Shown: piece after piece, positions 822 through 52,903 of the stretch
Layout of the letters: each line of letters starts with the position of its first letter
Numbering within the stretch: position 1 is the stretch's first letter
Program-made: the position numbers and the translations under genes
The notes under the pieces: model-generated
The model's input: only the letters and a program-made list of their open reading frames with translations
Database searches by the model: none
What the model was told of the DNA's origin: nothing
Source: Amaricoccus sp.
Lineage (GTDB): Bacteria; Pseudomonadota; Alphaproteobacteria; Rhodobacterales; Rhodobacteraceae
DNA length: 64,000 nt
NCBI RefSeq assembly: GCF_017993425.1
Contig: NZ_JAGOMQ010000018.1
Span: forward strand, 1-64,000
Direction: 5' to 3'

Positions 822-1085
822 CCCTCATGGCCAATCGCGATGCTGTCGGACGGGACCGGGCAGATGCGAACGGGCGGCCTCTCGACCATGTTTGTTTCCG
901 TGCAAATATAATTCGAAATATATATGCAAATATTTTGAATATAAACGGTGAAATCATTGCACAGTCATCAGCGCCGCATTTCGCGGCGCCGTTCGATTCA
1001 CTTGCAGCTTGTGCCCTTCCTGTCCCGGCCGCTCCGCGTCGGGGAGGTTGACATGCGGGCGCCCTCGCGAGGCGGGACGGCGCCG
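822..1085 (+). repeat. Repeat A copy 1
   Basis: The AT-rich start (around 901-950), the GCGCCGC/GCGGCGC hairpin (about 970-990) and the GC-rich tail match the other A copies. The copy is the most diverged: the AT block carries an insertion and the CATGCGCATG palindrome has decayed. About 80 bp upstream (822-900) are also shared with copy 4 only, including the string CTCGACCATG, so copies 1 and 4 form a subtype. Its GC-rich end lies about 40 bp from the stop of the LysR gene at 1121. Confidence 0.82.
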
Positions 1086-1120
1086 CTGGTCGATCCTTGC
1101 CGCCTCGGTCGTGCAGGCCC

Positions 1121-2011
1121 TCACACCTGCGAGCGCAGCCAGGAGACGAAGGCCTTGAGCGGCGGGCGCATCACGCCGGGGCGGGTGACGATCCAGTAGC
1201 CGGCGCCCTCGTCGGCGAGACCGCCCCCCGGCGGCGGGGCGAAGACCTCGACGAGGCGGCCGGCGGCGATCTCGGCCAGCGCCGCGGGCCGCGCCATCAC
1301 CGAGATGCCGATCCCGGCGCGCACCGCCTCGAGCATGGAGTGGTTGGGGACCTGGGTCACGGTGCGGCGCGGCCCCTCGACCACCCCCTGCTCGGCGAGC
1401 CAGCGGGTCATCTCGTTGGCGCCGATCTCGACGATCCACGGCAGGTCGAGGAGGTCCGCGGCGGCGGCGACCCGCCGCCCCGCCACGAGCCCGGGCGCCG
1501 CGACGATCATGAAGTCCGAGGGAAGCAGCAGCTCGCAGGAAAGCCCGGCCCAGTCGCCCCTGCCGTAGCGGATGGCGACGTCGACGCCGCCGGGGGCGAG
1601 CTCGACGAGGTCGTAGGTCGGGTTCAGCAGCAGGTCGAGGTCGGGATGGGCGACGAGGAACGCCGGCAGCCGCGGCATCAGCCAGGCGCTGGCGAAGAGC
1701 GGGGTGACGGTCACCTGCAACGGCCGCCCGGCGTCCGCGCCGGTCAGCTCGTCGACGCCGCGGCGGATCTGGCGGAACCCCTCCTGGAGCGCCGCCGCGA
1801 GGCGCGCCCCCTCCGGCGTCAGCGCGAGCCGCCGGCCGCCGCCTCGGTCGACGAGCGTGGCCCCCAGCCGGTCCTCCAGCGCGCGGACCTGCTGGCTGAC
1901 CGCGGCGTGGCTGACGTTGAGCGCCGCCCCGGCGGCGGTGAAGCTGCCGGTCTGGGCCAGCGCGGCAAAGGCGCGGAGCGCGCCGAGGGAGGGGAGGGTC
2001 AGCCAGTCCAT
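1121..2011 (-). CDS. LysR-family transcriptional regulator (GcvA/AmpR-like)
   Basis: The 296-residue protein carries an N-terminal winged helix-turn-helix (about residues 8-65, with the typical GSFTAAGAALNVSHAAVSQQ recognition-helix pattern) and a periplasmic-binding-like effector domain. The pattern LTPEGARLAAAL after the HTH and the short effector domain resemble the GcvA/AmpR branch. The target is unknown. It is divergent from the DUF1127 gene. A dyad with T-N11-A geometry lies directly before the ATG and overlaps the AAGGA ribosome site, which may allow autoregulation. Confidence 0.9.
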   Translation of the reverse strand: MDWLTLPSLGALRAFAALAQTGSFTAAGAALNVSHAAVSQQVRALEDRLGATLVDRGGGRRLALTPEGARLAAALQEGFRQIRRGVDELTGADAGRPLQVTVTPLFASAWLMPRLPAFLVAHPDLDLLLNPTYDLVELAPGGVDVAIRYGRGDWAGLSCELLLPSDFMIVAAPGLVAGRRVAAAADLLDLPWIVEIGANEMTRWLAEQGVVEGPRRTVTQVPNHSMLEAVRAGIGISVMARPAALAEIAAGRLVEVFAPPPGGGLADEGAGYWIVTRPGVMRPPLKAFVSWLRSQV

Positions 2012-2013
2012 GC

Positions 2014-2028
2014 GTAAGGCGTCCTTAC
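2014..2028. promoter_or_regulatory. T-N11-A dyad overlapping the LysR ribosome site
   Basis: The sequence GTAAGG-CGT-CCTTAC is a perfect inverted repeat with T-N11-A spacing, the usual LysR-type operator geometry. It sits 3 bp upstream of the LysR start codon and contains its Shine-Dalgarno sequence, an unusual place for such an operator. Confidence 0.45.
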
Positions 2029-2267
2029 AGCGGCGAAGCTTTCCTGAGTCGCAGGAATGCCCGGAATCGGCGATTATCTCAAGTGTTCGGACGCAAGGTT
2101 CGGGAGGCGCGCCTGTCGGGAATTCTTGCAGAGTGCCTTTCGGTGGCCGTTCGCGCCGACGCCTGGTCGCCCGTCCCGTCGGACGGGGTCCGGACGACGG
2201 CGGGGGGCTTGCGGTTCCGGCGATCGGGGTCCGCGCGGCGACGCGCCGCCTCGGGATGGAGGATCAG

Positions 2268-2507
2268 ATGATGACGCATGTTCGGCAGGATGACTTCGGG
2301 TTCGGGACCGCGGCGGGTCGCGGCGGCGACGGGTTCCTCCGTCGCGTGGCGGCGGAGCTGCGCGCCTGGCGGGCGGCGCGGGCGCAGCGGGCGGGCGACC
2401 GCCGGGCCGGCCTGCGGCTGGCGTTGCTGGACGAGTATCTGCTGCGCGACATCGGCGTGACCCGCGGCGACGCGGTGCGTCTCGCGCTCGGCAGGGAGCA
2501 GAAGTAA
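2268..2507 (+). CDS. DUF1127 (YjiS-like) small protein
   Basis: The 79-residue protein ends in a DUF1127 domain: Arg-rich helix, then LLDEYLLRDIGVTRGDAVRLA (split here only by length limits of the family motif). DUF1127 proteins are small, basic and often bind RNA or act in stress, phosphate or carbon metabolism in alphaproteobacteria; a specific role is not visible here. The start at 2268 is preferred because GGAGG lies 5-8 bp upstream; an ATG at 2256 in the same frame would place the ribosome site inside the gene. It stands alone and is followed by two strong hairpins. Confidence 0.85.
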   Translation: MMTHVRQDDFGFGTAAGRGGDGFLRRVAAELRAWRAARAQRAGDRRAGLRLALLDEYLLRDIGVTRGDAVRLALGREQK

Positions 2508-2514
2508 CCGACCG

Positions 2515-2539
2515 CGCCGCGCCCGGGACGGGCGCGGCG
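2515..2539 (+). terminator. Hairpin after DUF1127 gene
   Basis: A 10-bp perfect stem (CGCCGCGCCC / GGGCGCGGCG) with a 5-base loop starts 8 bp after the stop codon. It is followed by TTCGG, with no long T-run. Confidence 0.6.
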
Positions 2540-2559
2540 TTCGGACGGGGGATGCGAGG

Positions 2560-2587
2560 GGCGGGGCGCGCGGGCGCCCCGCCCTTT
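2560..2587 (+). terminator. Second hairpin with short T-run
   Basis: A 9-bp stem (GGCGGGGCG / CGCCCCGCC) with a 6-base loop is followed directly by CTTTC. Together with the preceding hairpin it forms a tandem terminator for the DUF1127 transcript. Confidence 0.6.
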
Positions 2588-2783
2588 CGCGTCAGGAGGG
2601 CTGCGGGGGATCGCGCCGGGCGGGCGGGCGTGGTTGCACGTGGCTCGGGGCGACCTCTCCGGAGCGCATCGGCGCGCCAGACATGGCGGGCGCGCAGCGC
2701 CGGCCGGGGCGCTGCCGGATCGGCGGGAAGCCGGCGCCGTTGCGGCTCGTCCCGGGCGAAGCGATCAGGCGGGGGGCAGGAGA

Positions 2784-3524
2784 TCAGGCGTCGGGGGGCT
2801 CGTCGGGCGGGGTCGGGGCGAGGACGCCGCGGCGTTGCAGCCAGCCGGCGACGAGGAGGCAGCCGAGCGCCCAGCCGGCGCCGGCGGCCCAGCCGGCGAG
2901 GACGTCCGTCGGCCAGTGGACCCCGAGATAGACCCGGCTCGTCCCGACGAGGAGGGTGAGCAGGATCGCCACCGCGAGGATGTAGATGCGGACGCGGCGG
3001 CGCTTCTCGACGCGGGCGAGCATGACGGCGAGGGTGAGGTAGACCACCGCCGCCATCATGGCGTGGGAGCTCGGGAAGGACGAGGTGTAGGTGACGGCCC
3101 CGTGCGGCACGAGGTCGGGGCGCGGGCGGTCGAAGCCGCCCTTGAGGAGGAGGCTCGCCGCGATCCCGGAGGCGCTCGCGCCGAGGACGAGGGCGGTCGC
3201 GCCGCGGCGGCCGATCAGCCAGAGGTAGCCGGCCGCCGTCAGCGTGACCATGACGAGCACGCCGGTGCCGCCGAGCGCGGTGACGTCGCGGGCGAGCTCC
3301 GCCACCCAGACCGGGCCGAGCGGGTCGGCGGGGTCGCCGGGATCGCGCAGCGCGAGGAGGACCGCCACGTCGAAGCGGTGGGTCTCGCCCTCGCGCATCT
3401 CGTCGGCGAGCCGGGCGAAGGCCCAGCCGCAGGCGGAGATGACGAGGAGGAGGATCAGCGCGCGCCGGCCCACGAGGGGTCGCGCGCGGTCGAGGGCGTC
3501 GCGGGCGAGGCGGCGGAGGGTCAT
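2784..3524 (-). CDS. PAP2-superfamily membrane phosphatase
   Basis: The 246-residue protein has about six hydrophobic segments and all three PAP2 signature motifs: K-x6-RP (LKGGFDRPRP), PSSH (SFPSSHA) and SR-x5-H-x3-D (SRVYLGVHWPTD). These form the vanadate-haloperoxidase-like active site of lipid phosphatases acting on phosphatidic acid, undecaprenyl diphosphate or similar substrates at the outer face of the inner membrane. I chose the ATG at 3524; codons further upstream belong to repeat B1, which ends about 14 bp before the start. No strong ribosome site is visible. Confidence 0.88.
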   Translation of the reverse strand: MTLRRLARDALDRARPLVGRRALILLLVISACGWAFARLADEMREGETHRFDVAVLLALRDPGDPADPLGPVWVAELARDVTALGGTGVLVMVTLTAAGYLWLIGRRGATALVLGASASGIAASLLLKGGFDRPRPDLVPHGAVTYTSSFPSSHAMMAAVVYLTLAVMLARVEKRRRVRIYILAVAILLTLLVGTSRVYLGVHWPTDVLAGWAAGAGWALGCLLVAGWLQRRGVLAPTPPDEPPDA

Positions 3525-3537
3525 GCCGGCGCCCGGG

Positions 3538-3882
3538 CTACGGCGTTCACACATCCCGGCTGAAGCCACGGATCGGGAGGAATGGGCCGCGACGTCGAAG
3601 CCCGACGGATTTGACCCGCGGCAAATCCGTCCGCGATCGCCCCTGCGGGGGGCGAGCGCGATTCCGCGCTCGCCGGGGCGCTCACGGACGGATTGCGCGC
3701 GACGGAGAAATCTTCACCCCTGACGACCTCCGCGCCAGCGCGCTCCGGTCGTCGGCGCGGCGAAAGCCGTGCTTTCGCTTGTCGCGCCGCAGCCTCGCGG
3801 GCGGAGCCCGCTTCGGTCGGTCGGCTATCGGCTTCCTGTCGTTCGGTCCATGGCGGCTGGAGGAGACGTGTGAATTCGCTAG
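3538..3882 (+). repeat. Repeat B copy 1
   Basis: About 345 bp nearly identical to 52968-53312 and, for its central 240 bp, to 8752-8990. It contains a 9-bp hairpin ACGGATTTG/CAAATCCGT, a long imperfect stem between CCGTCCGCGATCGCCCC and its complement, an inner 10-bp stem GGCGAGCGCG/CGCGCTCGCC, and a hairpin around GCGGCGAAAGC. There is no plausible gene in it on either strand. Confidence 0.9.
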
Positions 3883-4088
3883 GCGTCCGGGAACTGGCGG
3901 GGCCGGGCTGGCGGTCATGTTCGAAGCGGGGGGTCGTGTGGGCTCCGGGGGGTTGTCCGCCCGGCCTGACCCGCCGCGCCGGCGGCTGCGCCCGGGTCCG
4001 GGGTTCTGGCGGGGGCGTCGGGTTTATTTCGTCAATTTGGCACGAATATAGCGGCGTAGACAAATGCTTGCGGAGCGCATCGCAATAT

Positions 4089-4319
4089 TGCGCGCAAATA
4101 TATTTCGAAATATTTTGAATATGAACGGTGAAAATCATTGCATCGTTATCAGCGCCGCATCTCGCGGCGCCGCTTGACTCACTTCGAGGTTCCGCCGTCC
4201 CCGCCCCTGCCGCTCCGCGTCGAGCCGGGCGGCATGCGCATGTCGCCCGGCGGGCGCCGTCGCGGGACAGGCCTTTCCGCTCGGGAAGGCCGGAGACGTC
4301 GGGAGGCCGGCTGGCCGGA
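4089..4319 (+). repeat. Repeat A copy 2
   Basis: The element starts with the AT block (TGCGCGCAAATATATTTCGA), continues with the GCGCCGC/GCGGCGC hairpin, the palindrome centred on CATGCGCATG at 4225-4250 (one mismatch), and a terminal hairpin GGCCTTTCC/GGGAAGGCC. Its GC end lies about 23 bp from the stop of the alkB-like gene at 4342. It follows repeat B1 by about 200 bp. Confidence 0.92.
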
Positions 4320-4341
4320 TCGCGGCAGGGGGCGGCGGGGA

Positions 4342-4938
4342 TCATGCGACCACGCGGCAGGTGAGGTTGAGGCGGCCGCCCTCGGGGAGGAGGCGGGAGG
4401 AGCCGAAGCGGATGCGGTCGATCCCGTGATAGGCCAGGCGGGCGGGGCCGGCCATGACGACGACGTCGCCGCTCTCGAGCTCGATGGCGGCGGTGGGGTC
4501 GTCGCGGCTGAGTCCGCCCATGCGGAAGAGCGCGCTGTCGCCGAGGCTGACGGAGAGGACGGGCCAGCGGAAGTCGCCCTCGTCGGCGTCGCGGTGGAGG
4601 CCCATGCGGGCCTTGGCGCCGTAGAAGTTGACGAGGCAGCAGTCGGGGTCGCGCTCCGGCGCGCAGAGCTCGCGCCAGAGGGCGAGGACGGCGGCGGGGA
4701 TCGGCGGCCAGGCGCCGCCGGCGGGGTGGCGGGGCTCGTAGCGGTAGCCGCGGCGGTCGGTGACCCAGCCGAGGCGGCCGGCGGAGGTCATGCGCACGCT
4801 CATCGGCTTGCCCCAGGGGGTGACGGGGGCGAAGAACGGCGCGGCGGCGGCGACGGCGCGCAGGTCCTCGACCAGCGCCCCCTGCGCGGCGGCGTCGAGG
4901 CGGCCCTTGTGGATCAGAAACCCGTTAACCTCGAGCAT
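4342..4938 (-). CDS. alkB: AlkB-family 2-oxoglutarate/Fe(II) dioxygenase
   Basis: The 198-residue protein has the AlkB signature: iron ligands His115 and Asp117 in MGLHRDAD, His171 in LAYHG, and the 2-oxoglutarate-binding RLNLTCR near the C terminus (Arg189, Arg195). AlkB proteins remove methyl groups from N1-methyladenine and N3-methylcytosine in DNA or RNA by oxidative demethylation. It is a single gene divergent from the macA-like gene, 150 bp away, and no ada-like partner is present. Confidence 0.92.
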   Translation of the reverse strand: MLEVNGFLIHKGRLDAAAQGALVEDLRAVAAAAPFFAPVTPWGKPMSVRMTSAGRLGWVTDRRGYRYEPRHPAGGAWPPIPAAVLALWRELCAPERDPDCCLVNFYGAKARMGLHRDADEGDFRWPVLSVSLGDSALFRMGGLSRDDPTAAIELESGDVVVMAGPARLAYHGIDRIRFGSSRLLPEGGRLNLTCRVVA

Positions 4939-5088
4939 CCGTGCGTTCCTTCCGGGGGCAACCCGGACTTAGGATGGCGGCGGCGGTTTCGCCAGACGCC
5001 GGCAGCCCCCATGTGGACGGGGTGGGGCGCGACGGAAGCGCGGGCCGGGCGCGTTGAAGCCCGGGAAGAGGACGGAAGCGAGGGCCGG

Positions 5089-6513
5089 ATGGCGGGACAT
5101 CTTCGCGACGCGGCGGACAAGGCGCCGCTGCATCCGGTGCGGGCCGAGGCCGGCGCGCCGGCGCAGCCGCGCGCGGTGGAGGCCCCGGCCGCGGCGCAGC
5201 CGCGGGTGGTCGAGCCGGCGGCGCAGCCACGCGTGGTCGAGCCGGCGGCGCAGCCGCGGGTGGTGGAGTCTCCGGCGGCGCAGCCGCGGGTGGCGGAGCC
5301 GCCAGCGGGGCCGGGGAAGCGGCGGGGGCGCGGGCGGTGGGTCGTGGGCGCGCTGGCGGCGGCGGCGGCCGTGGCGGCCGGGCTCTGGCTGCGGCCGGCG
5401 GCGGAGACCGCTTCGGCGCCGATCACCGCGCCGGTGGCGCTCGGCACGGTCGAGGAGAGCGTGCTGGCGACCGGGCTCCTGAAGCCGACGGACCTGGTGG
5501 CGGTCGGCGCGCAGGTGTCGGGGCGGATCGTCAACCTCGCGGTGAGCCTCGGGCAGGAGGTGCGCGCCGGCGACCTGATCGCCGAGATCGACCCGGCCCC
5601 CCGCGAGAACGCCATCCGCATCGCGGAGGCCGCGCTGGCGGAGGTGCGGGCCGAGCGGACGGAGCAGGAGGCGACGCTGGCCGAGCAGCGGCGGGTGCTG
5701 GCGCGGCGCGAGGCGCTGGCGGCGCGCGCGGCGATCTCGGAGGCCGACGCGGAGACCGCGGCCTCGGAGGTCGAGGTGACGCAGGCGCGGATCGACGCGC
5801 TCGACGCGCGGATCCGCTCGGCGGAGGTGGCGGTCGAGGACGCGCGGATCGACCTCGGCTATGCGCGGATCACCGCGCCGGGCGACGGGACGGTGCTCGC
5901 GGTGGTGGCGCAGCAGGGGCAGACGGTCAACGCGACGCAGACGACGCCGACGATCGTGGTGCTGGGCAGGCTCGACGTGATGAGCGTCGAGGCGGAGATC
6001 TCGGAGGCCGACGTGGTGCGGGTCGCGCCCGGGCAGGCGGCGTGGTTCACCATCGTCGGCGATCCGGAGACGCGGTATCCGGCGACGCTCGCCTCGATCG
6101 CGCCGGCGCCGACCTCGATCACCAAGGACACGCTGCTGACCGGCGAGGCGTCGACGGCCAACGAGGAGGCGATCTACTACAACGGCATCCTGACGGTGCC
6201 GAACCCGGACGGGCGGCTCCGGACCTACATGACCGCGCAGGTGCATCTGGTGCTCGGCCGCGCCGAGGACGTGCCGACGATCCCGGCGGCGGCGCTGGGG
6301 GCGCGCAACGCGGACGGGACGCGGGCGGCGACGGTGGTGGGCGCGGAGGGCGCGCTGGAGACGCGGACGGTGACAACGGGGCTCGCGGACGATGCGCTCG
6401 TCGAGGTGCGCTCGGGGCTCGCGGTCGGCGAGAACGTAGCGATCGGCGACGTCGGCGCCGCGCCGGCGCGCTCGACGGCGGCGCGGCGCGGGCCGCCGCC
6501 GATGGGGTTCTGA
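5089..6513 (+). CDS. macA: MacA/HlyD-like periplasmic adaptor subunit
   Basis: The 474-residue protein has one transmembrane helix (about residues 85-102), then a membrane-fusion-protein layout: a lipoyl-like half (QVSGRIVNLAVSLGQEVRAGDLIAEID), a coiled-coil hairpin rich in A, E and R, the second lipoyl half (YARITAPGDGTVLAVVAQQG) and beta-barrel and membrane-proximal domains. It would link the MacB-like transporter to an outer-membrane channel. The cytoplasmic N terminus is unusually long and holds about five imperfect repeats of AAQPRVVEP. The start at 5089 is the best ATG before this region; the open frame extends further upstream without support. Confidence 0.85.
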   Translation: MAGHLRDAADKAPLHPVRAEAGAPAQPRAVEAPAAAQPRVVEPAAQPRVVEPAAQPRVVESPAAQPRVAEPPAGPGKRRGRGRWVVGALAAAAAVAAGLWLRPAAETASAPITAPVALGTVEESVLATGLLKPTDLVAVGAQVSGRIVNLAVSLGQEVRAGDLIAEIDPAPRENAIRIAEAALAEVRAERTEQEATLAEQRRVLARREALAARAAISEADAETAASEVEVTQARIDALDARIRSAEVAVEDARIDLGYARITAPGDGTVLAVVAQQGQTVNATQTTPTIVVLGRLDVMSVEAEISEADVVRVAPGQAAWFTIVGDPETRYPATLASIAPAPTSITKDTLLTGEASTANEEAIYYNGILTVPNPDGRLRTYMTAQVHLVLGRAEDVPTIPAAALGARNADGTRAATVVGAEGALETRTVTTGLADDALVEVRSGLAVGENVAIGDVGAAPARSTAARRGPPPMGF

Positions 6514-6649
6514 GCGGCGGATGCGGCGTGGTTAACACGCGTGATAGGGTGGTCATGCTCTTGAAGTCGTTCGGTGAAACGGATCGTCGTGATTATGCGG
6601 GCGTGCGCCTCGTCGGCGGGCGCGGCCGGACGGAGGGGGCGGACTGACC

Positions 6650-8590: not shown

Positions 8591-8751
8591 GGCGGCGGGG
8601 CGGGCCCCGTTTCGCCGGGAGCGGCGCGGGCCTGCTCGCCGGTCGCGCGCGTGAAATCCGCATCAAGATGTTGATCCGGTTGGATGATCCGGAATCCGTC
8701 AACCGATTCTCACACTGCACGACAGTGGAGAGGAAGCCCGGCCCGAGGCTG

Positions 8752-8990
8752 GCCGCGACGCCGACGCCAGACGGATTTGACCCGTGGCAAATCCGTCCGC
8801 GATCGCCCCTGCGGGGGGCGAGCGCGATTCCGCGCTCGCCGGGGCGATCACGGACGGATGGCGCGCGACGGGGAAATCTGGCCCCCCCACGGCTTCCGCG
8901 CGCAACCGCGCTCCAGCCGTCGGCGCGGCGAAAGCCGTGCTTTCGCTTGTCGCGCCGAGCCTCGCGGGCAAGCCCGCTTCGGTCGGTCGG
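8752..8990 (+). repeat. Repeat B copy 2 (partial)
   Basis: This copy begins near the GGCCGCGAC motif and ends after the GGTCGGTCGG motif. It lacks the first 45 bp and the last 55 bp of copies 1 and 3. The long stem, inner GGCGAGCGCG stem and GCGGCGAAAGC hairpin are all kept. It lies between macB and the dnaK promoter, in the same orientation as both genes. Confidence 0.88.
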
Positions 8991-9244
8991 TCGACGCGCG
9001 CGCCCCGTGGACCCAGCAGAGCAGGCAGGTGTCGAGCAGTGTGACCGATTCTTCACGAAGGTTGACGGGCGCCGGCCGGGCGGAGCTTCCGCAGGCAGGG
9101 CCGCCGTCGCGGCGGTGCGTCGCGCCGGCGGGGCGCGGGGGTGGCGGGCGGGATCGGCGCGCCCGGGCCGGGGCGCGGGCGGCTTCCGGGCGGATCGGGC
9201 CGCGCGGCGACGGAACAATCGCGCGAGCGAGCGTGGGCGCGATC

Positions 9245-20516: not shown

Positions 20517-20900
20517 GGTCATGTGTTTGATAAGATTGCGAATTAAGGGCATTGTAACCGTGCGGCGCGCTCCCTTCGGGCCGGATCCGCGGCGGGCGCG
20601 ACGTCCGGCCGGGACGGCTGGGACAGGGAGCGACGCCATCCCCCCTGCCCCATGCGGCGATTGCGGACGAGGTCGCCGCGGGTCGGTTCAGGCCGGGGTC
20701 GCCTGCACCGCAGGCCCGGCTTTCAGGGGGCGCCGCGGTCCCCGCCTGAGGCGGATCGCGCGACGGTCCCCGCCGAGGGCGAGCCGTCACTGGCCAGCCC
20801 GAACTGTTTCTCTTGAAGTGCGAGATGCCGACGTCGCCGGGGGCGTTCGGCGCACACACAGCAGCCTTACGGAAAACGCGAACAAGGCATTCGTGAATGC

Positions 20901-21110
20901 CCGCAAATATATTTCGAAATATTTTGAATATGAGCGGTGAAAATCATTGCATCGTCATCAGCGCCGCATTTCGCGGCGCCGTGCGGCTCACTTCGATGTT
21001 CCGCCGGTCCTGCCCCTGCCGCTCCGCGTCGAGCCGGGAGACATGCGCATGTCTCCCGGCAGGCGCCGTCGCGGGGCCGACCGCGCCGCCGGGAGACGCC
21101 GGGATCCGCC
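20901..21110 (+). repeat. Repeat A copy 3
   Basis: The AT block, hairpin GCGCCGC/GCGGCGC and a perfect 26-bp palindrome (21034-21059, centre CATGCGCATG, arms CCGGGAGA/TCTCCCGG) are present. Its GC end lies about 25 bp from the ilvE stop at 21134. Confidence 0.93.
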
Positions 21111-40783: not shown

Positions 40784-40865
40784 AAAATTGCCTAAGCCAT
40801 TGATTCTTCGTCGCGGGCGATGAGCTTGCCCGCGTCCGGGCGCCCGAAACGACGCCAGGGCCGTG

Positions 40866-41172
40866 CATCCTCAGGGCAATCGCCCGTGATGCTTCCGGAC
40901 GAGATCGGGCAGATGCTAACGGGCGACATCTCGACCATGATTATTTGCGCGCAAGTATATTTCGAAATATTTTGAATATAAACGGTGAAAATCATTGCAC
41001 AGTTAGCAGCGCCGCATTTCGCGGCGCCGTTTGATTCACTTGAGGCTTGCACGCTTCCTGCCCCGGCCGCTCCGCGTCGAGCCGGGTGACATGCGCATGT
41101 CACCCCGCGGGCGCCGTCGCGGGACAGACCTCGCCGCCCGGGAGGGGCGGCGACGCGGGGAGGGAAGGTCGG
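40866..41172 (+). repeat. Repeat A copy 4
   Basis: The core starts at 40945 with the AT block; the GCGCCGC/GCGGCGC hairpin and the palindrome (41082-41107, arms CCGGGTGA/TCACCCcG with one mismatch) follow, then a TCGCCGCC/GGCGGCGA hairpin. The 80 bp upstream (40866-40944) match the upstream part of copy 1. Its GC end lies about 53 bp from the cbpM-like stop at 41225. Confidence 0.92.
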
Positions 41173-41224
41173 GAGCTGAACAGCCGAAGCTGGTATGATA
41201 GCGCCGGCCGCGCCGGGCGCCGCG

Positions 41225-44749: not shown

Positions 44750-47567
44750 CGCGGCGGCCCGCGCGGACGTCGCGCCGCCGGACTGGCCCGGGATCTGCGC
44801 CGGCCCGGCGGCCATCCTCGACGTCGCCGGCGCGCAGGCGGCGATCTCGGCCGCCGCCTCGGGCGCGGCGGACCGGACCGACCGGCGGCCGCGGGCGGTC
44901 GCGGCGTTGCGCGAGGCCCATGCCGAGGGCCGCGCCCACATCGCCGCCGCGGTCGCCGCGGCGCCGACCGAGGCGCACCGGGCGATCCACGACTACGCCT
45001 GGCTGACCGACCGGATCGTCACCCTGACGCTCGACCTCGCCTTCAACTGGCTGCACCCGCTCGCCAACCCGACCTCGACGGAGCGGGTCGCCGCCATCGC
45101 CACCGGCGGCTACGGCCGCGGCGAGATGGCGCCCTTCTCCGACATCGACCTCCTGTTCCTCACCCCCTACAAGCAGACCGCCTGGGGCGAGAGCCTGATC
45201 GAGAGCGTGCTCTACTGCCTGTGGGACCTGCGGCTGAAGGTCGGGCACGCGGCGCGGACGGTGGACGACTGCATCCGGCTGGGGCGGCAGGACCTGACGA
45301 TCCGCACCTCGCTCCTCGAGAACCGCTACGTCTGGGGCGACGCGGCGCTGGCGGCGACGCTGTCGGACCGGCTGTGGACGGAGCTTTTCGCCAATACCGG
45401 CCCGGAGTTCGTCGAGGCGAAGCTCGTCGAGCGCGCCGACCGCCACACCCGCCAAGGCGCCTCGCGCTACCTGCTCGAGCCGAACGTCAAGGAGGGCAAG
45501 GGCGGCCTGCGCGACCTCCAGACGCTGTTCTGGATCACCAAGTACCTCTACCGCGGCGCCACGCCGGCGGATCTCGTCGAGCTCGGGGTGTTCACGCCGG
45601 AGGAGCACCGCATCTTCGCCGACGCCGAGGCGTTCCTGTGGATGACGCGGGTGCATCTGCACCTGATCAACAACCGCGCCACCGAGCAGCTCACCTTCGA
45701 CGCCCAGGTCGAGATCGCCGCGACGCTCGGCTACACGCCGACCGAGGGCCAGCGCTCGGTCGAGCGGTTCATGCAGCGCTACTTCACCCATGCGAAGCAC
45801 GTGGGCGACCTCACCCGCATCTTCCTCGCCGGGCTGGAGGCGCGGCACGTGCGGCCGAAGCCCTCCTTCGGGCAGACGCTGAAGAACGTGTTCTCGATCG
45901 GCCGCGACCCGCAGGCGGCGCCGGGCTACCGGCTGAAGCACGGGCGGCTCGACATCGCCGACCCGGAGCGGTTCCTCGCCGACCCGGTCAACCTGCTGCG
46001 GCTCTTCGAGGTCGGCTCGGCGAGCGACGCGCCGATCCATCCCGACGCGCTGCGGCTGGTCGCCGCCAACCTCGCGCTGGTCGACGACACGGTGCGCACG
46101 GACCCGGAGGCGAACCGCATCTTCCTCGCGCTGCTGACCGGGCACAACAACCCGGAGCGGGCGCTCCGGCTGATGAACGAGGTGGGGCTCCTCGGCGCCT
46201 TCATCCCGGAATTCGGCCGGGTGGTCGCGATGATGCAGTTCAACATGTACCACCATTACACGGTGGACGAGCACACGATCCGGGCGATCTCGACGCTGAG
46301 CCAGATCAGCCGGGGCGAGCTCAACGACGAGCTGCCGGTCGCCTCTGGGATCGTCGAGCGCGGCGTGAACCGGCGCGTGCTCTACGTGGCGCTGCTGATC
46401 CACGACCTCGGCAAGGGATCGGGCAAGGACCATTCGCTGGTGGGGGCGGGGATCGCGCGGACGCTGTGCCCGCGGCTCGGGCTCGACGCCGAGGAGAGCA
46501 CGCTGGTCGAGTGGCTGGTCAAGCATCACCTGATGATGTCGGACGTCGCCCAGCGCCGCGACCTCGCCGACCCGCGCACCGTGCGCGACTTCGCCGCCGC
46601 GGTGCAGAGCCCGTCGCGGCTGCGGCTGCTGACCGTGCTGACGGTCTGCGACATCCGCGGGGTGGGGCCGGGCATCTGGAACAACTGGAAGGCGATGCTG
46701 CTGCGGGCGCTCTATGCCGAGACGATCGAGCACCTGACCGGCGGCAGCCAGGCGCAGAGCGGGCCGGAGCGCGAGGCGGCGGCCAAGGAGGCGCTGGCGG
46801 GCGAGCTGGCCGGCTGGCCGCCCGACGCCGTCGCCGCCGAGCAGGCGCGGCACTACACGCCCTACTGGCTGGGGTTCGACCCGCGCACCCACGCGATCTT
46901 CGCCGGGCTGATCGAGCGGCTCGCGGGGGGCGAGGAGCCGGCGATGCATGTCGAGCCCGCCGAGGAGCGCGACGCGACGCAGGTCTGCTTCGTGATGTCG
47001 GACCATCCCGGCATCTTCGCGCGGCTCGCGGGCGCGCTGGCGCTCGCGGGGGCGAACGTGGTCGACGCGCGGACCTACACCTCGTCGGACGGCATCGCGA
47101 CGGCGGCGTTCTGGATCCAGGACCGCGAGGGCAAGCCCTACGAGCATTCGCGGATGGCGCGGCTGCGCACGGCCGTGCTGCGCACGCTGAAGGGCGAGAT
47201 CGTCGCCCGCGACGCGTTGCGCGACAAGGACAAGGTGAAGCGCCGCGAGCGCGACTTCGACGTGCCGACCCGGGTGAGCTTCGACAACGAGGGGTCGGAC
47301 ATCTACACGATCATCGAGGTCGAGACGCGCGACCGGCCCGGGCTGCTCTTCGACCTCGCCCGGACGCTGACGGCGAACAACATCTCCATCGCCTCGGCGA
47401 TCATCGCCACCTACGGCGAGCAGGCGGTGGACGTGTTCTACGTGAAGGACCTGTTCGGGCTGAAGCTCTTCGCCGAGTCGAAGCGGCGCACCCTCGCCAC
47501 CCGGCTGCGCGCCGCCATCACGCCCCCGCCTGCGGCCGGGGCCGAGGCGGGCGAGCCGTCGGCGTAG
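44739..47567 (+). CDS. glnD: Bifunctional uridylyltransferase/uridylyl-removing enzyme
   Basis: The 942-residue protein senses glutamine and modifies PII proteins. Domains in order: nucleotidyltransferase (ATGGYGRGEMAPFSDIDLLF), GlnE-like helical region, HD domain (LLIHDLGKGSGKDHS), and two C-terminal ACT domains (SDHPGIFARLAGALALAGAN; RDRPGLLFDLARTLTANN). No ATG is open near the start; the TTG at 44739 overlapping the upstream gene is the only suitable start, so translation is probably coupled. Confidence 0.95.
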   Translation: MATDAAARADVAPPDWPGICAGPAAILDVAGAQAAISAAASGAADRTDRRPRAVAALREAHAEGRAHIAAAVAAAPTEAHRAIHDYAWLTDRIVTLTLDLAFNWLHPLANPTSTERVAAIATGGYGRGEMAPFSDIDLLFLTPYKQTAWGESLIESVLYCLWDLRLKVGHAARTVDDCIRLGRQDLTIRTSLLENRYVWGDAALAATLSDRLWTELFANTGPEFVEAKLVERADRHTRQGASRYLLEPNVKEGKGGLRDLQTLFWITKYLYRGATPADLVELGVFTPEEHRIFADAEAFLWMTRVHLHLINNRATEQLTFDAQVEIAATLGYTPTEGQRSVERFMQRYFTHAKHVGDLTRIFLAGLEARHVRPKPSFGQTLKNVFSIGRDPQAAPGYRLKHGRLDIADPERFLADPVNLLRLFEVGSASDAPIHPDALRLVAANLALVDDTVRTDPEANRIFLALLTGHNNPERALRLMNEVGLLGAFIPEFGRVVAMMQFNMYHHYTVDEHTIRAISTLSQISRGELNDELPVASGIVERGVNRRVLYVALLIHDLGKGSGKDHSLVGAGIARTLCPRLGLDAEESTLVEWLVKHHLMMSDVAQRRDLADPRTVRDFAAAVQSPSRLRLLTVLTVCDIRGVGPGIWNNWKAMLLRALYAETIEHLTGGSQAQSGPEREAAAKEALAGELAGWPPDAVAAEQARHYTPYWLGFDPRTHAIFAGLIERLAGGEEPAMHVEPAEERDATQVCFVMSDHPGIFARLAGALALAGANVVDARTYTSSDGIATAAFWIQDREGKPYEHSRMARLRTAVLRTLKGEIVARDALRDKDKVKRRERDFDVPTRVSFDNEGSDIYTIIEVETRDRPGLLFDLARTLTANNISIASAIIATYGEQAVDVFYVKDLFGLKLFAESKRRTLATRLRAAITPPPAAGAEAGEPSA

Positions 47568-47613
47568 GGGGGCCCGCCGCAGGCCCGTCGACACGGGATC
47601 CGGCTGTTCGGTT

Positions 47614-47840
47614 CCGACCTTCCCTCCCCGCGTCGCCGCCCCTCCCGAGCGGCGAGGGTCCGTCCCGCGACGGCGCCCGCCGGGCGACATGCGCATGTCA
47701 CCCGGCTCGACGCGGACCGGTAGCGGCGGGGACGGCGGAACCTCGAAGTGAGTCGAACGGCGCCGCGAAATGCGGCGCCGATAACGATGCGATGATTTTC
47801 ACCGCTCATATTCAAAATATTTTGAAATATATTTGCGCGT
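47614..47840 (-). repeat. Repeat A copy 5 (inverted)
   Basis: This copy is reversed relative to the others. Read on the minus strand it has the AT block, a 9-bp CGGCGCCGC/GCGGCGCCG hairpin, the palindrome (47680-47705; arms CCGGGTGA/TCGCCCGG, one G-T pair) and the final hairpin. Its GC end lies 47 bp from the glnD stop. Confidence 0.93.
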
Positions 47841-48051
47841 AAATTCCAGTAACAGGCAGGCGCGCCGGAAGTTCTTTTAATGCGCTATTCCTCATCCGAT
47901 CAACATCAACGTGCTCGGGCTCGTCGATCCCACGGCCAAGCGGCTCAACCGCCGACACGAAAGACCAGGCCCCAAGGCCGTCCGAGGCGACCAACCTGCG
48001 CCTGTACGAAAGGGTTGGCAGAGCCCTTCCGGGCGACCCGGCCCGTCGATT
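47841..48051. other. Spacer between repeat A5 and GFA gene
   Basis: No gene or clear regulatory site is visible. Part of it is less GC-rich than the coding regions. Confidence 0.45.
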
Positions 48052-48471
48052 TCAGGGATCGATGGGCGACGGGACGCCTTCGGCGAAGGCCGGCAGGCTG
48101 GGGTCGGTCGGGGCCCAGGACAGGCGGTGCGAGAGCCAGGTCTCGCAGACGGGCGGCGCGGCCTCGGGGTCGTCGAGGCTGGCGAGGGTGACGTCGATGG
48201 TGTGGGGCTCGCCCTGCCAGGTCAGGCTGGCCCCGCAGGCGGCGCAGTGGGCGCGGGCGACGCCGGGCGAGGAGGCATGGCGCGCCGGGGCGGCGGCGGT
48301 CCAGGCGAAGGCGGCGCCGGGGAACGTCCCCCAGGCGACGGACTGCGCCCCGGCGGCGCGGCGGCAGGTGGCGCAGTGGCAGATCAGGGTCACGAGCGGC
48401 GCGGCCTCGATCCGGTAGCGGACCGCGCCGCAGAGGCAGCCGCCGGTCAGGACCGGGGCGGGCCGCGTCAC
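48052..48471 (-). CDS. GFA-family protein (Gfa/CENP-V-like)
   Basis: The 139-residue protein has the zinc-binding pattern of the glutathione-dependent formaldehyde-activating family: GGCLCGAVRYRIEA, LICHCATCRRAAG and HCAACGASLTWQG. The fold binds two zinc ions; most members have no proven activity. The GTG start overlaps the ocd-like stop (GTGA), so it is the last gene of the sseA operon. Confidence 0.88.
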   Translation of the reverse strand: MTRPAPVLTGGCLCGAVRYRIEAAPLVTLICHCATCRRAAGAQSVAWGTFPGAAFAWTAAAPARHASSPGVARAHCAACGASLTWQGEPHTIDVTLASLDDPEAAPPVCETWLSHRLSWAPTDPSLPAFAEGVPSPIDP

Positions 48472-49391
48472 GAGGCGGCCCGCCAGGCGGCGAGGATGGC
48501 GCGGCCGGTCATCAGGTCGAGATGGGCGCCGCCGCCGTTCTTGAAGAGGGTGATCTCGTCGGGAGCGCGGCGGCCGACCCGGCCGGCGACGAGATCGTGC
48601 AGGTCGCCGAGCACCCGGTCGCGCGAGATGACGCCGCGGGTCAGCGGATCCTTCAGCTCGCCGATATGGTCGAGGGTGGTGTCGCGGCTGTCGACGAAGA
48701 TGCGGGCCCGCCGCAGGCAGTCGTCGTCCGCCTCGCGCATGTCGGCGCGGTAGGCCCCGATCAGGTCGAGGTGCTGGCCCGGGCGGAGCCACGCCCCGTG
48801 CAGGACGGGCTCGGTCGCCATGGTGGCGGTCGCGACGATGTCGGCCTCCGCGACCGCGGCGGGGAGGTCCTCGACGGCCTCGGCCGCCTTGGCGGCGGCG
48901 AGGCGGCGGGCGGCCTCCGGGGTGCGGTTCCAGATCGACACGGCGAGGTCGGGAAAGCCGGCGCGGTAGGCGTCGACGAGCGAGGCGGCGACGGAGCCGG
49001 CGCCGAGGATCAGGAGCCGCCGCGCGTCGGGGCGGGCGAGCAGGCGCGCGCCGAGGAGCGAGTCGGCGGCGGTCTTCCACCGGGTGACCAGCGCGCTGTC
49101 GACGATCGCCTCGACGGCCCCGGTGGCGTCTTCGAAGAGCAGGAGCGCGCCGTTGACGCTCGGCAGGCCGCGGCCCGGGTTGGCGGGGACGACGGTCACC
49201 GAGTTGGTCGCCGCGCCGAGGCCGTCCACCCAGGCCGAGCGGGTGAGCAGGGTGTCCTCGCCGCGGCGCAGGAGCAGGTCGGCCAGCGCCGGGCGGTGGC
49301 GGCGGTGGCCCTCGGCCAGCGCCCCGGTCATCGCCAGCCAGTCGAGGCGGTCCTCGACGTCCCCGGCGGCGATGACCGGGATGGCGGCCAC
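48468..49391 (-). CDS. Ornithine cyclodeaminase/mu-crystallin family protein
   Basis: The 307-residue protein has the family motifs NSVTVVPANPGRGLPSVNGA, LVTRWKTAADSLLGARLLA, ILGAGSVAASLVDAYR and VDSRDTTLDHIGEL. Members include ornithine cyclodeaminase, alanine dehydrogenase and imine reductases such as those for pyrroline-2-carboxylate. The exact reaction cannot be told. It sits between an aminotransferase and a GFA gene in one operon. Confidence 0.87.
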   Translation of the reverse strand: MAAIPVIAAGDVEDRLDWLAMTGALAEGHRRHRPALADLLLRRGEDTLLTRSAWVDGLGAATNSVTVVPANPGRGLPSVNGALLLFEDATGAVEAIVDSALVTRWKTAADSLLGARLLARPDARRLLILGAGSVAASLVDAYRAGFPDLAVSIWNRTPEAARRLAAAKAAEAVEDLPAAVAEADIVATATMATEPVLHGAWLRPGQHLDLIGAYRADMREADDDCLRRARIFVDSRDTTLDHIGELKDPLTRGVISRDRVLGDLHDLVAGRVGRRAPDEITLFKNGGGAHLDLMTGRAILAAWRAAS

Positions 49392-49401
49392 GGCGGCGCG
49401 C

Positions 49402-50586
49402 TCAGACCCCCGCCGACGCGATGGCGGCGGCGAGGCGGTCTAGGCCCTGCGCGGGCAGGCCCGCGACGTTGATGCGGCTGTCGCCGACCATGTAGACGCC
49501 GTGCTCGTCGCGCAGGCGCTGGACCTGCTCGGGCGTCGCGCCGGTCAGCGAGAACATGCCGCGGTGGTTGAGGATGAAGTCGAAGCGGTCGGAGTTGGTC
49601 GCCCGGCGCATGGCGTCGGCGAGGCCCTGCCGGAGCACGAGCATCCCGAGGCGCATCTCCTCGAGCTCGGCCGCCCAGTCGGCGCGCAGCTCCGGGTCGT
49701 TGAGGATGATCTCGACGACCTTGGCGCCGTGGTCGGGCGGGAAGGAGAAGTTGAGCCGGTTGAGCGTCGCGAGGTTCGCCCGCGCCCGGCCGGCCTCGTC
49801 GGCGTCACGGGCGATGGCGAGCGCGAGGCCGACGCGCTCGCGGTAGAGGCCGAAGTTCTTGGAGCAGCTCGCGGCGAGCAGGAACTCCGGCGCGCGGGCG
49901 GCGAGGCGGCGCAGGGCGGCGGCGTCCTTGTCGAGCCCGTCGCCGAAGCCCTGGTAGGCGAGGTCGACCATCGGGATCGCGCCGGTGGCGTCGAGGATGT
50001 CGGCCACCTTGTCCCACTGGTCGAGGGTGAGGTTGGCGCCCGTCGGGTTGTGGCAGCAGCCGTGCAGGAGCAGGACGTCGCCGGGCTTCATCGCCGCGAG
50101 GTCGGCCGTCATGCCCTCGAAGTCGACGCCGCGGGTGGCGGGGTCGAAGTAGCGATGGGTGCGGAAGGGGATGCCGATCCCCTTGAGGATCGCGGCGTGG
50201 TTCGGCCAGCTCGGCTCGGGCAGCCAGACGGTGAGGCCGGGATTAGCGCGGCGGGCGAGGTCGAAGAGCTGGCGGAGCGCGCCGGTGCCGCCGACGGCCT
50301 GGGTCATGGCGATGCGCTCGCGCGGGCGGTCGGGGCCGAGGACCAGCTCCGCCATCGCCTCGTTGAAGGCGGAGTCGCCGAGGAGGGCGACGTAGGCCTT
50401 GGTGGCCTGGCCCTCGAGCAGGCGCTTCTCCGCGGCCTTGACCGCGCGCATGACCGGAGTGCGGCCGTTCGCGTCCTTGTAGACGCCGACGCCGAGGTCG
50501 AGCTTGTCCTGGCGCGGGTCGGCGGCGAACTCGGCCATCATGGCGATGATCTTGTCGGCCGGCTGGTTCTCGAGGGTCTCAAGCAT
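49402..50586 (-). CDS. Aromatic/aspartate aminotransferase (class I)
   Basis: The 394-residue PLP enzyme is of the AspC/TyrB subgroup: LDLGVGVYKDANGRTPVMRAV, AVGGTGALRQLF, GCCHNPTGANLT and the PLP lysine in SCSKNFGLYRERVG. It transaminates aspartate or aromatic amino acids, and AspC-type enzymes can also turn cysteine into 3-mercaptopyruvate, the substrate of the SseA protein in the same operon. Confidence 0.92.
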   Translation of the reverse strand: MLETLENQPADKIIAMMAEFAADPRQDKLDLGVGVYKDANGRTPVMRAVKAAEKRLLEGQATKAYVALLGDSAFNEAMAELVLGPDRPRERIAMTQAVGGTGALRQLFDLARRANPGLTVWLPEPSWPNHAAILKGIGIPFRTHRYFDPATRGVDFEGMTADLAAMKPGDVLLLHGCCHNPTGANLTLDQWDKVADILDATGAIPMVDLAYQGFGDGLDKDAAALRRLAARAPEFLLAASCSKNFGLYRERVGLALAIARDADEAGRARANLATLNRLNFSFPPDHGAKVVEIILNDPELRADWAAELEEMRLGMLVLRQGLADAMRRATNSDRFDFILNHRGMFSLTGATPEQVQRLRDEHGVYMVGDSRINVAGLPAQGLDRLAAAIASAGV

Positions 50587-50607
50587 CTCGGGGATCCTGG
50601 TGCTGGG

Positions 50608-51165
50608 CTAGTCGCCGACGCTGGCGCGGTCGCGCGTCAGCACGCGGCTGCGCGTCTCGCGGCGGACCGGCGCGAAGCCCGCCTTCTGGTAGAGGGGCAG
50701 CGCCCTCGGGTGGTCGAGCGAGTTGGTGTTGACGGTGACCCGGGCCACGCCGGGGCGGTCCCAGGCGGCGTGGACCGCCGTCTCGACGAGGAAGCGGCCG
50801 AGCCCCTGGCCGATCGCCTCCGGCGGCAGGCCGAAATAGGCGAGGTCGCAGACGCCGCGCTCGCGGGCGTCGAGGGCGAAGAAGCCGTGCGGCCAGCCGG
50901 CCCGCATCAGGGTGTGCAGGGTCACCGCCGGGTCGGCGAGGAAGGTCTCGAGCTCGGGCCTCGGGCGGTCGTGCTGGTCAGTCCACTCGTACTCGGAGCC
51001 GACGGCGTCGTAGAGGGCGAGGAACCACCAGACCGGCGGGCGCTCGGCGACGAGGAGCGCGGAGGCGGGGCCGACGGGCATCGGCGGCCGCGGCGATGCC
51101 GGCCGCGCGTCCATCTCGAGGAAGGTCACGACGTAGTCGACCCGTTCCCCGGCGCGGTGGATCAT
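50608..51165 (-). CDS. GNAT-family N-acetyltransferase
   Basis: The 185-residue protein has the acetyl-CoA motif region EAIGQGLGRFLVETAVHAAW and the C-terminal NTNSLDHPRALPLYQKAGF typical of GNAT enzymes. The target is unknown. It lies 11 bp after sseA and 21 bp before the aminotransferase gene. Confidence 0.88.
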   Translation of the reverse strand: MIHRAGERVDYVVTFLEMDARPASPRPPMPVGPASALLVAERPPVWWFLALYDAVGSEYEWTDQHDRPRPELETFLADPAVTLHTLMRAGWPHGFFALDARERGVCDLAYFGLPPEAIGQGLGRFLVETAVHAAWDRPGVARVTVNTNSLDHPRALPLYQKAGFAPVRRETRSRVLTRDRASVGD

Positions 51166-51176
51166 CGCGCCCCCCT

Positions 51177-52028
51177 TCAGCCCTTCTCGACCTTGAGGTC
51201 GGGATAGGCGCCCCACTCCGCCCAGGAGCCGTCGTAGAGGGCGTGGCGGTCGTTGCCGAGGCGCTCCAGCGCGAGGTTGAGGATCGCCGCGGAGACGCCC
51301 GAGCCGCAGGAGGTGATCACCGGCTTCTCGACGTCGACGCCGGCGGCCTCGAAGGCGGCGCGGAGGGCGGCGGGGTCCTTGAGCGTGCCGTCGGGGTTGA
51401 CGAGGGTGGCGTAGTGGACGTTCCGCGCGCCGGGGATGTGGCCGGAGCGCAGGCCGGGGCGGGGCTCCGGCTCTTCGCCGCGGAAGCGGCCGGGCGAGCG
51501 GGCGTCGACGATCTGGGTGTCCGCGAGCTTCGCCGAGGCCGCAACCTGGGTGACGTCGCGGACGAGGGCGGCGTTGCGGCGGGCGGTGAAGTGGCGGTCC
51601 CGCAGGATCGGCCAGCCCTCCTCGATCGCGCGGCCCTCGGCCTTCCACTTCGGCAGGCCGCCGTCGAGCACGGCGACGTCGGTCTTGCCGAAGAGGCGGA
51701 AGAGCCACCAGACCCGGGCGGCGGAGAAGAGGCCGGCGCTGTCGTAGACGACGACGCGGTGGCCGTCGCCGACGCCCATGGCCCGCATCCGGGAGACGAA
51801 CTTCTCGACCGGCGGCGCCATGTGAGGCAGCTCGGACTGGGTGTCGGAGATCTCGTCGATGTCGAAGAAGCGGGCGCGGGGGATGTGGCCGGCGATGAAC
51901 TCGGCCCTGGGGTCGCGGCCGGCGTCGGGCATGTGCCACGACGCGTCGAGGACGCGCAGGTCGGGGGCGCCGAGATGCGCCGCCAGCCATTCGGTGGAGA
52001 CGAGGAGCTGGGGGTCGCTGGTGCTCAT
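51177..52028 (-). CDS. sseA: 3-Mercaptopyruvate sulfurtransferase
   Basis: The 283-residue protein has two rhodanese domains; catalytic Cys241 lies in CGSGVSA, the loop of mercaptopyruvate rather than thiosulfate sulfurtransferases. It moves sulfane sulfur from 3-mercaptopyruvate to acceptors such as thioredoxin. The ATG at 52028 is the domain start. It heads the operon sseA-GNAT-aminotransferase-ocd-gfa. Upstream lies a four-unit iteron array. Confidence 0.93.
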   Translation of the reverse strand: MSTSDPQLLVSTEWLAAHLGAPDLRVLDASWHMPDAGRDPRAEFIAGHIPRARFFDIDEISDTQSELPHMAPPVEKFVSRMRAMGVGDGHRVVVYDSAGLFSAARVWWLFRLFGKTDVAVLDGGLPKWKAEGRAIEEGWPILRDRHFTARRNAALVRDVTQVAASAKLADTQIVDARSPGRFRGEEPEPRPGLRSGHIPGARNVHYATLVNPDGTLKDPAALRAAFEAAGVDVEKPVITSCGSGVSAAILNLALERLGNDRHALYDGSWAEWGAYPDLKVEKG

Positions 52029-52200
52029 GCGGCGCCTTTCGGGCTCTTGGGCGGGCGGTCGGCCCGGAATACCGGCCGCGGGCCCCAGCGGCAAGCCCGG
52101 GCGCAACGGGTTCTTGCGGCGGGTCGTCGCCGAGGCGGCGCGTGAACCGTGTGTGCCCACGCGTGAACAGGGGTCAAGTCATTGAAATCACGTGTCGCTA

Positions 52201-52240
52201 TGCACGAGATTGCACGAACCTGCACGATATTGCACGGATT
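52201..52240. repeat. Four 10-bp iterons upstream of sseA
   Basis: TGCACGAGAT, TGCACGAACC, TGCACGATAT and TGCACGGATT follow each other without gaps, so TGCACG recurs exactly every 10 bp, one helical turn. It lies about 175 bp before the sseA start codon. Exact phasing suggests a binding site for a multimeric protein. Confidence 0.7.
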
Positions 52241-52674
52241 TCCCCCGGGCGGGAGAGATCGGGTTCATACGGCGGACTGCTTCGCCGTGGCCGGTTCCAG
52301 GAACGCCCTGCGCGCGTCCGGCCGATGTCTTCCGGATCGGGATTTTCATGGGCGGCCTTCCCGTGAAAATGGTGGCGCTGGCGCCGAACCCCGCCCATCT
52401 CGCACGACGACCGGCCAACCTGCCTCGGCGGCTGTGCGGCGAAGCGACAGAGGTCGTCAATGGCGACTTCGGCCGACGCCTGCCGTTCGCGTGGACGGGA
52501 CGGGTTTTCGGTATGCGCCCCCGGGCTGCGGCGCGATTTGTCATACCGGCTCGCTTCGTCTGCTCCGTTTTGGATTGGCGGGATCGACAGGTCCGGGCAT
52601 CTTGGCGTTGATGAGGCTGGGGCGGCGGACCGCACACAGAAACATCACGGCGAAGGGTCAAGGCGTTCCTGAAT
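52241..52674. other. Spacer between iterons and repeat A6
   Basis: No gene is recognised. An 11-bp stem ATTTTCATGGG / CCCGTGAAAAT (one G-U pair, 7-base loop) occurs at 52342-52370. Base composition is less GC-rich than in the genes. Confidence 0.45.
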
Positions 52675-52903
52675 TTGCGCGCAAATATATTTCGAAATAT
52701 TTTGAATATGAACGGTGAAAATCATTGCATCTTTATCAGCGCCGCATTTCGCGGCGCCGTGTGACTCACTTGGAGGTTCCGCCGTCCCCGTGGCTGCCGC
52801 TCCGCATCGAGCCGGGTGACATGCGCATGTCACCCGGCGGGCGCCGTCGCGGGACGGACCTCGCCGCCCGGGAGGGGCGGCGACGCGGGGAGGGCGGGTC
52901 GGG
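52675..52903 (+). repeat. Repeat A copy 6
   Basis: It has the AT block, the GCGCCGC/GCGGCGC hairpin, a perfect 26-bp palindrome (52812-52837, arms CCGGGTGA/TCACCCGG) and the TCGCCGCC/GGCGGCGA hairpin. Between it and the stop of the next gene (53355) lies repeat B3. Confidence 0.93.

What the first reader, a model, noticed from the sequence alone, without database searches (positions are those of the whole stretch)
822..52903. Six-copy structured intergenic element (repeat A) always placed in 3' regions
Six copies of a 200-230 bp element lie at about 822-1085, 4089-4319, 20901-21110, 40866-41172, 47614-47840 (reverse) and 52675-52903. Each has an AT-rich block with the palindrome ATATTTCGAAATAT, the hairpin GCGCCGC/GCGGCGC, a 26-bp palindrome centred on CATGCGCATG, and a last hairpin. 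In all six the GC-rich end faces a stop codon (23-53 bp away; in the sixth, repeat B3 intervenes). So every host transcript reads the element in the same sense: hairpins first, AT block last. I know of no named element with this layout. It may be a 3'-UTR/terminator module or a mobile element with strict site preference.
Basis: seen in the sequence. Interest (0 to 1): 0.8.

Follow-up and report, generated by a model that had tools for sequence, protein, structure and literature searches.

The report
Mosaic miniature mobile element, 70+ copies
A family of more than 70 small non-coding repeats in this Rhodobacterales genome is best read as a miniature mobile element that lacks its own enzyme; it sits between genes, mostly just after stop codons, and the unusual part is that its structured middle is well preserved while its ends are not.

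Summary
The six copies are real and the family is larger: 66 core sites in the 4.24 Mb genome (reversed-pattern control 0), 72 copies in the stretches read. No full copy was found in 40 relatives, and no match in 84,980 genomes by exact pattern, plasmids or phages. Two forms share one core (AT block, hairpin, long palindrome). Form 2 (27 copies; window copy 1) is a ~345-bp MITE-like element: inverted ends CACGCTRCACGAC, 9-bp target duplications in two copies. Repeat B (duplications in 20 of 26 copies) and an insertion-sequence-like end at several contig edges carry the same ends, so one transposase probably moved all three. Form 1 (45 copies) has other, mostly unrecognisable ends. 'Always in 3' regions' is only partly right: the GC end faces a stop in 58 of 70 (form 1 40/44, form 2 18/26). 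Copies avoid divergent gaps (1 of 65), but so does repeat B (1 of 26). A sister species lacks the element at 4 of 4 comparable sites. Verdict: a new MITE family, ordinary in kind; the conserved core and form 1's orientation bias remain unexplained.

The parts
795..1120 (+). Copy 1, form 2: decayed left end at 795, AT block ~903-945, hairpin 1 ~971-989, palindrome 2 partly deleted, right inverted end reaching 1120
1121..2011 (-). LysR-type regulator gene whose stop codon (1121-1123) abuts the right end of copy 1
4088..4319 (+). Copy 2, form 1: core and part of right arm; no recognisable left arm
4342..4938 (-). 2OG-Fe(II) oxygenase gene; its stop faces the GC end of copy 2
20898..21110 (+). Copy 3, form 1: core and part of right arm; sister genome G003 is collinear only down to window 21133, the stop-codon edge of the next gene
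40841..41198 (+). Copy 4, mosaic: form-2 left arm (from 40841), mainly form-1 core, form-1 right arm ending GGTATGA (41192-41198)
47591..47966 (-). Copy 5, form 1 with diverged left arm (bounds approximate); stop of glnD (47567) faces its GC end
52541..52903 (+). Copy 6, form 1 with left arm starting TCATACC (52541)
52684..52712 (-). Promoter-like site TTCATA-17-TATATT in the AT block of copy 6, firing outward; the same site in copy 2 is 4097-4125
   Evidence: consensus match only
8711..9043 (.). Repeat B copy 2: 333-bp MITE, inverted ends CACACTGCACGAC / CACACTGCTCGAC, flanked by exact 9-bp target duplication ACCGATTCT; same end type as form 2 of repeat A
3585..3883 (.). Repeat B copy 1, left of copy 2 of repeat A; the usual B end was not found here within 1 mismatch
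53014..53312 (.). Repeat B copy 3, between copy 6 of repeat A and the TonB receptor gene; the usual B end was not found here within 1 mismatch

Best explanation
Repeat A is a lineage-specific family of non-autonomous mobile elements (MITE type). Form 2 was moved by a transposase that recognises ends beginning CACRCTRCACGAC and duplicates 9 bp of target; the same enzyme probably moved repeat B and belongs to an insertion sequence whose ends break several contigs. Form 1 carries the same core between other, mostly unrecognisable ends and is probably an older relative; recombination between copies has made mosaics. Copies are found only between called genes and mainly behind stop codons, most likely because insertions into genes and promoters were removed by selection. 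Shown: copy number, inverted ends of form 2, target duplications for B and for two form-2 copies, element-free sister sites, mosaics, shared avoidance of divergent gaps. Inferred: the transposase, how form 1 moved, and why the core is conserved (constraint, gene conversion or variable source elements).
For: 66 core sites, control 0. Form 2: left end recognised 101-106 bp before the core with 9 or fewer of 26 mismatches in 9 of 27 copies, right end with 6 or fewer of 32 in 11 of 27; form-1 flanks give 2 and 0 of 45, shuffled form-2 flanks 1.5% and 0%. Target duplication 9/9 in L119, 8/9 in L142. Repeat B: 20 of 26 TIR-bounded copies have 9- or 10-bp duplications with at most one mismatch (its 27th row is a form-2 A). 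The TIR pattern occurs 151 times, reversed control 1. Near-identical ends with this TIR start four contigs, and a second end closes C24. Of nine flank pairs tried in sister G003, four are adjacent there, none with repeat A; own spacing is 317, 366, 418 and 171 bp longer. No copy overlaps a called gene by more than 60 bp: 0 of 72. Mosaics: window copy 4, L113, L108, L109.
Against: Ends are the worst conserved part of A (form 1, 38 copies: left arm 0.31-0.50 mean pairwise identity against 0.78-0.96 in the core; form 2, 15 copies: from 0.94 in the core to 0.47 and 0.59 at the ends), the reverse of what a recently mobile MITE shows. Only 2 of 5 form-2 copies with both ends recognised show a target duplication; L130 and window copy 1 have 4 and 3 mismatches, L140 has a B inserted at its right end. 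A crude shared-word test of flanks shows no excess in either form. The interior of the insertion sequence and its transposase were not found. At three sister sites the extra DNA exceeds the core by roughly 100-200 bp, little of it alike between copies.
Confidence: 0.75

Rival explanations
1. A host-maintained 3'-end cassette: the core is transcribed from the upstream gene as hairpins, ends or stabilises that transcript, and its AT block is an outward promoter for the next gene. Former MITEs were domesticated.
For: Core conserved while arms are not; in 51 aligned copies palindrome 2 and hairpin 1 keep pairing, with compensatory changes in palindrome 2 (37 cells against 9.2 in shuffles, 97.7% paired); form-1 tandem copies oriented 17:4 with the AT block toward the next start; outward promoter-like match of at least 9/12 in 40 of 61 copies against 11% of mononucleotide shuffles, inward 5 of 61 (copies are related, so this is close to one observation).
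Against: No terminator-like site in the core of the two copies scanned (one weak hit outside the core of copy 2, none in copy 6); GU-type intermediates in 62 palindromes show no clear strand preference (5 against 8); form 2 has no orientation bias (7:5); the AT side faces a start codon in only 25 of 65 non-edge copies; absent from the sister species.
Confidence: 0.13
2. Not exclusive of the best explanation: copies are kept alike by gene conversion between dispersed cores, without host function; the loss of similarity in the arms marks the edges of conversion tracts.
For: Identity falls away from the core on both sides in both forms; mosaic copies exist; collinearity with G003 ends within about 40 bp of the GC edges of window copies 3, 4 and 5, as ectopic recombination could give.
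Against: No tract analysis was done; L119 has an exact target duplication but a diverged left end, so end divergence need not reflect age.
Confidence: 0.3
3. REP/BIME-type repeat moved by a RAYT (Y1) transposase.
For: Intergenic, palindromic, multicopy.
Against: No Y1_Tnp (PF01797) in the genome while 5 of 14 control genomes ring; inverted ends and 9-bp target duplications.
Confidence: 0.02
4. A structured small-RNA family.
For: Copy 2 folds better than shuffles: z -1.7 in gene sense, -3.0 in the other sense.
Against: No Rfam match; no clear strand preference of GU pairs; inward promoter-like match of at least 9/12 in only 5 of 61.
Confidence: 0.04

Closest known systems
Bacterial MITEs (non-autonomous IS derivatives; definition recalled)
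   Same: Short, non-coding, multicopy; inverted ends and 9-bp target duplications in repeat B and in part of form 2
   Different: Ends of A less conserved than its interior; one core occurs with two kinds of ends
Pneumococcal RUP, SPRITE and BOX repeats (PMC3049150; passages seen)
   Same: Over-represented between convergent genes, as IS elements are there; some BOX copies supply stop codons; the authors take the distribution as a sign of parasitic mobile repeats
   Different: No sequence relation tested; A shows an orientation bias in form 1
REP/BIME repeats (PMC3733652; start of abstract in search listings)
   Same: Extragenic palindromes in many copies
   Different: A is ~200-390 bp (REPs 20-40 bp per that abstract), has inverted ends, and the genome has no Y1 transposase

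Membership tests
MITE (form 2 of A) | Short, multicopy, no coding capacity of its own | tested here: met
   ~345 bp, 27 copies, no called gene overlapping
MITE (form 2 of A) | Terminal inverted repeats | tested here: met
   9 of 27 left and 11 of 27 right ends recognised, both in 5; form-1 flanks as control 2 and 0 of 45
MITE (form 2 of A) | Target-site duplication | tested here: inconclusive
   9/9 in L119, 8/9 in L142, not in L130 or window copy 1, L140 interrupted
MITE (form 2 of A) | Ends shared with an autonomous IS in the same genome | tested here: inconclusive
   Same TIR at repeated contig-edge ends; transposase not seen
MITE (form 1 of A) | Terminal inverted repeats | tested here: inconclusive
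   TGATACC/GGTATCA in long copies; left end within 3 mismatches at 8 sites, right end at 4
MITE (form 1 of A) | Target-site duplication | tested here: inconclusive
   Shared 8-letter flank words in 31 of 44 against shuffled mean 26.9, max 33; the test is weak, since form 2 gives 14 of 20 against 11.4, max 16
MITE (repeat B) | Inverted ends plus 9-bp target duplication | tested here: met
   20 of 26 with at most 1 mismatch over 9 or 10 bp; copies were chosen by their ends
REP/RAYT | Y1 (RAYT) transposase in the genome | tested here: not met
   PF01797 absent; 5 of 14 control genomes positive
Intrinsic terminator | GC stem followed at once by a T run | tested here: not met
   No such site in the core of the two copies scanned; commonest sequence after hairpin 1 is TGATAACGATGCAATGATTT
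Known Rfam family | Score above gathering threshold | tested here: not met
   0 matches in the window

The most novel reading that the evidence does not exclude
The core is a domesticated, self-contained 3' boundary module: hairpins behind one gene and an outward promoter for the next, spread to 70-odd loci by two different transposon backbones and since then kept by selection while the backbones rotted away.
Probability: 0.12. Interest if true: 0.7.

Novelty: new member of a known kind. Interest (0 to 1): 0.38.

Why it matters
It adds a lineage-specific MITE pair (A form 2 and B) with a common end type to Rhodobacterales, and warns that a 3'-end position seen in six copies can come from selection against other positions. 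A core conserved better than the ends that should have moved it would, if confirmed across strains, be a good test case for gene conversion against host constraint on a mobile repeat.

Tried and rejected
RAYT/REP: no Y1 transposase. Rfam: none in the window. Known plasmid or phage element: no match for A or B (plasmids, 88 viral contigs). An autonomous element with form-1 ends: the end patterns hit only A copies (8 left, 4 right). Long direct repeats flanking A: 10 of 72 copies against 17 of 132 control positions, no excess; L114 (46 bp, 89%) and L094 (41 bp, 90%) remain odd. Transposase family of the insertion sequence: a 40-residue end fragment matched no Pfam or NCBIfam model and no plasmid; its other end gave one plasmid match, 82% over 78 bp, none in phages. 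Interior of the insertion sequence: not in the first 1.6 kb of 40 further contigs. Papers: three searches returned nothing, two returned lists from which I used the two papers cited. Limits: gene calls come from my own codon-model script; background gaps come from stretches centred on A copies; the relatives search scored at most 19 candidates per genome; own-genome DNA searches scored at most 40. No covariance-model search was run; E. coli and metagenome collections were not searched.
Full report
Observation. The six copies exist as described. The window lies in a 4.24 Mb, 102-contig genome; the nearest named relatives by GlnD are an Amaricoccus MAG (74%) and other Rhodobacterales. A core pattern with up to 3 mismatches finds 66 sites, 35 forward and 31 reverse, and none for the reversed control. 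In the window plus 60 fetched stretches a profile finds 72 copies of at least 70 bits; a further partial copy turned up in L290, so 72 is a lower bound.

Distribution. No full copy was found in 40 relatives, ten of them of the same genus; three weak partial matches of 40-46 bits lie at the GC end (at most 19 candidates scored per genome). An exact core pattern is absent from 84,980 genomes and from viral contigs; plasmids and phages give no match. The tools say that the own or very near genomes may be left out there.

Two forms. Diagnostic sites separate form 1 (45 copies) and form 2 (27). Form 2 usually has an extra 12-bp AT unit and the palindrome arm CAGGTTG instead of CCGGGTG. Some copies are mosaics: window copy 4 and L113 have a form-2 left arm on a form-1 body, L108 a form-1 left arm on a form-2 body, L109 a form-1 body with the form-2 palindrome.

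Ends of form 2 and repeat B. Five form-2 copies with both ends recognised run 326-348 bp between inverted ends CACGCTRCACGAC. Left ends are recognisable in 9 of 27 and right ends in 11 of 27, against 2 and 0 of 45 for form-1 flanks and 1.5% and 0% of shuffled flanks. L119 has an exact 9-bp target duplication and L142 one with a single mismatch; L130 and window copy 1 show none, and in L140 a B copy sits at the right end. Repeat B has the same kind of end, and 20 of 26 copies have 9- or 10-bp duplications with at most one mismatch, window 8711-9043 exactly. B copies were chosen by their ends, so their end conservation is not independent. The end pattern occurs 151 times in the genome (reversed control 1). 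Contigs C8, C19, C22 and C23 begin with one near-identical ~126-bp end of this type, and C24 closes with another, as a multicopy insertion sequence would cause; its interior was not found.

Ends of form 1. Long copies begin TGATACC and end GGTATCA; these ends were found only at A copies. The left arm is recognised at E below 0.001 in 16 of 72 copies, 13 of which built the profile. A crude test finds no excess of shared words in the flanks of form 1, nor of form 2, so it says little.

Sister genome. G003 (GlnD 90% identical) has no A match. Of nine sites tried, four have both flanks adjacent there, and none of the four holds A; the own spacing is longer by 317 bp (L104), 366 (L116), 418 (L118) and 171 (L132). 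At L104 the sister genes overlap where the own genome has the element between stop and start. Elsewhere collinearity ends within about 40 bp of the GC edges of window copies 3, 4 and 5.

Placement. Excluding 7 copies at contig edges, 31 lie in convergent, 33 in tandem and 1 in divergent gaps; gaps of at least 120 bp without A in the same stretches are 9, 37 and 31 (Fisher p 6e-9 for divergent). In the window alone all gaps of at least 60 bp are 6 convergent, 19 tandem, 9 divergent. Repeat B, without the one form-2 A in that list, shows 15, 10 and 1. The GC end faces a stop in 40 of 44 form-1 and 18 of 26 form-2 copies. In tandem gaps the ratio is 17:4 in form 1 (p 0.007) and 7:5 in form 2 (p 0.77). 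In convergent gaps the GC end is the nearer one in 25 of 31, in part because the left arm is longer than the right. So the 3' position is mostly generic, with a residual bias in form 1. Pneumococcal repeats and IS elements show the same convergent enrichment (PMC3049150, passages seen).

Structure and signals. In 51 aligned copies the named helices are kept (97.7% of cells paired, 37 double changes against 9.2 shuffled, the double changes in palindrome 2). In 62 of 72 palindromes that could be scored, pairing intermediates show no clear strand preference (5 against 8), so this fits DNA palindromes as well as RNA. An outward promoter-like motif scores at least 9/12 in 40 of 61 copies. No terminator-like site lies in the core of the two copies scanned.

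Open point. Mean pairwise identity is 0.78-0.96 in the form-1 core (38 copies) and 0.31-0.50 in its left arm, where copies without a recognisable arm are counted in; form 2 (15 copies) shows a milder gradient. This is not what a freshly amplified MITE shows. Gene conversion, constraint and variable source elements all remain possible.

Noticed in passing
window 3585-3883, 8711-9043, 53014-53312: Repeat B is a second MITE family in this genome (49 matches from a capped search; 26 end-bounded copies examined), with the same kind of ends as form 2 of A.
   Followed up: yes
L101, L107, L124, L138 (contig edges): An insertion-sequence-like end (GAGACCTCTGCGAAAC, with variants) sits in the AT block of four A copies; resemblance to IS5-type ends is recalled, not tested.
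   Followed up: partly
L114 2557: A 46-bp direct repeat (89%) that includes the 3' end of the neighbouring gene lies on both sides of a form-1 copy; L094 has a 41-bp repeat (90%).
   Followed up: partly
L113 2115-2677: Three A copies in inverted and direct arrangement within 570 bp.
   Followed up: no
window 52122-55850: Copy 6, repeat B3 and a TonB-dependent receptor gene are together missing from the matching place in sister G003.
   Followed up: partly
L268 2501-3069: A Limimaricola plasmid carries an 82% match to 78 bp of the insertion-sequence end near an unannotated fragment with the DUF772 transposase domain.
   Followed up: partly
window 1-328; 56652-56923: Tandem duplications of 164 bp (96%) and 136 bp (90%).
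   Followed up: no
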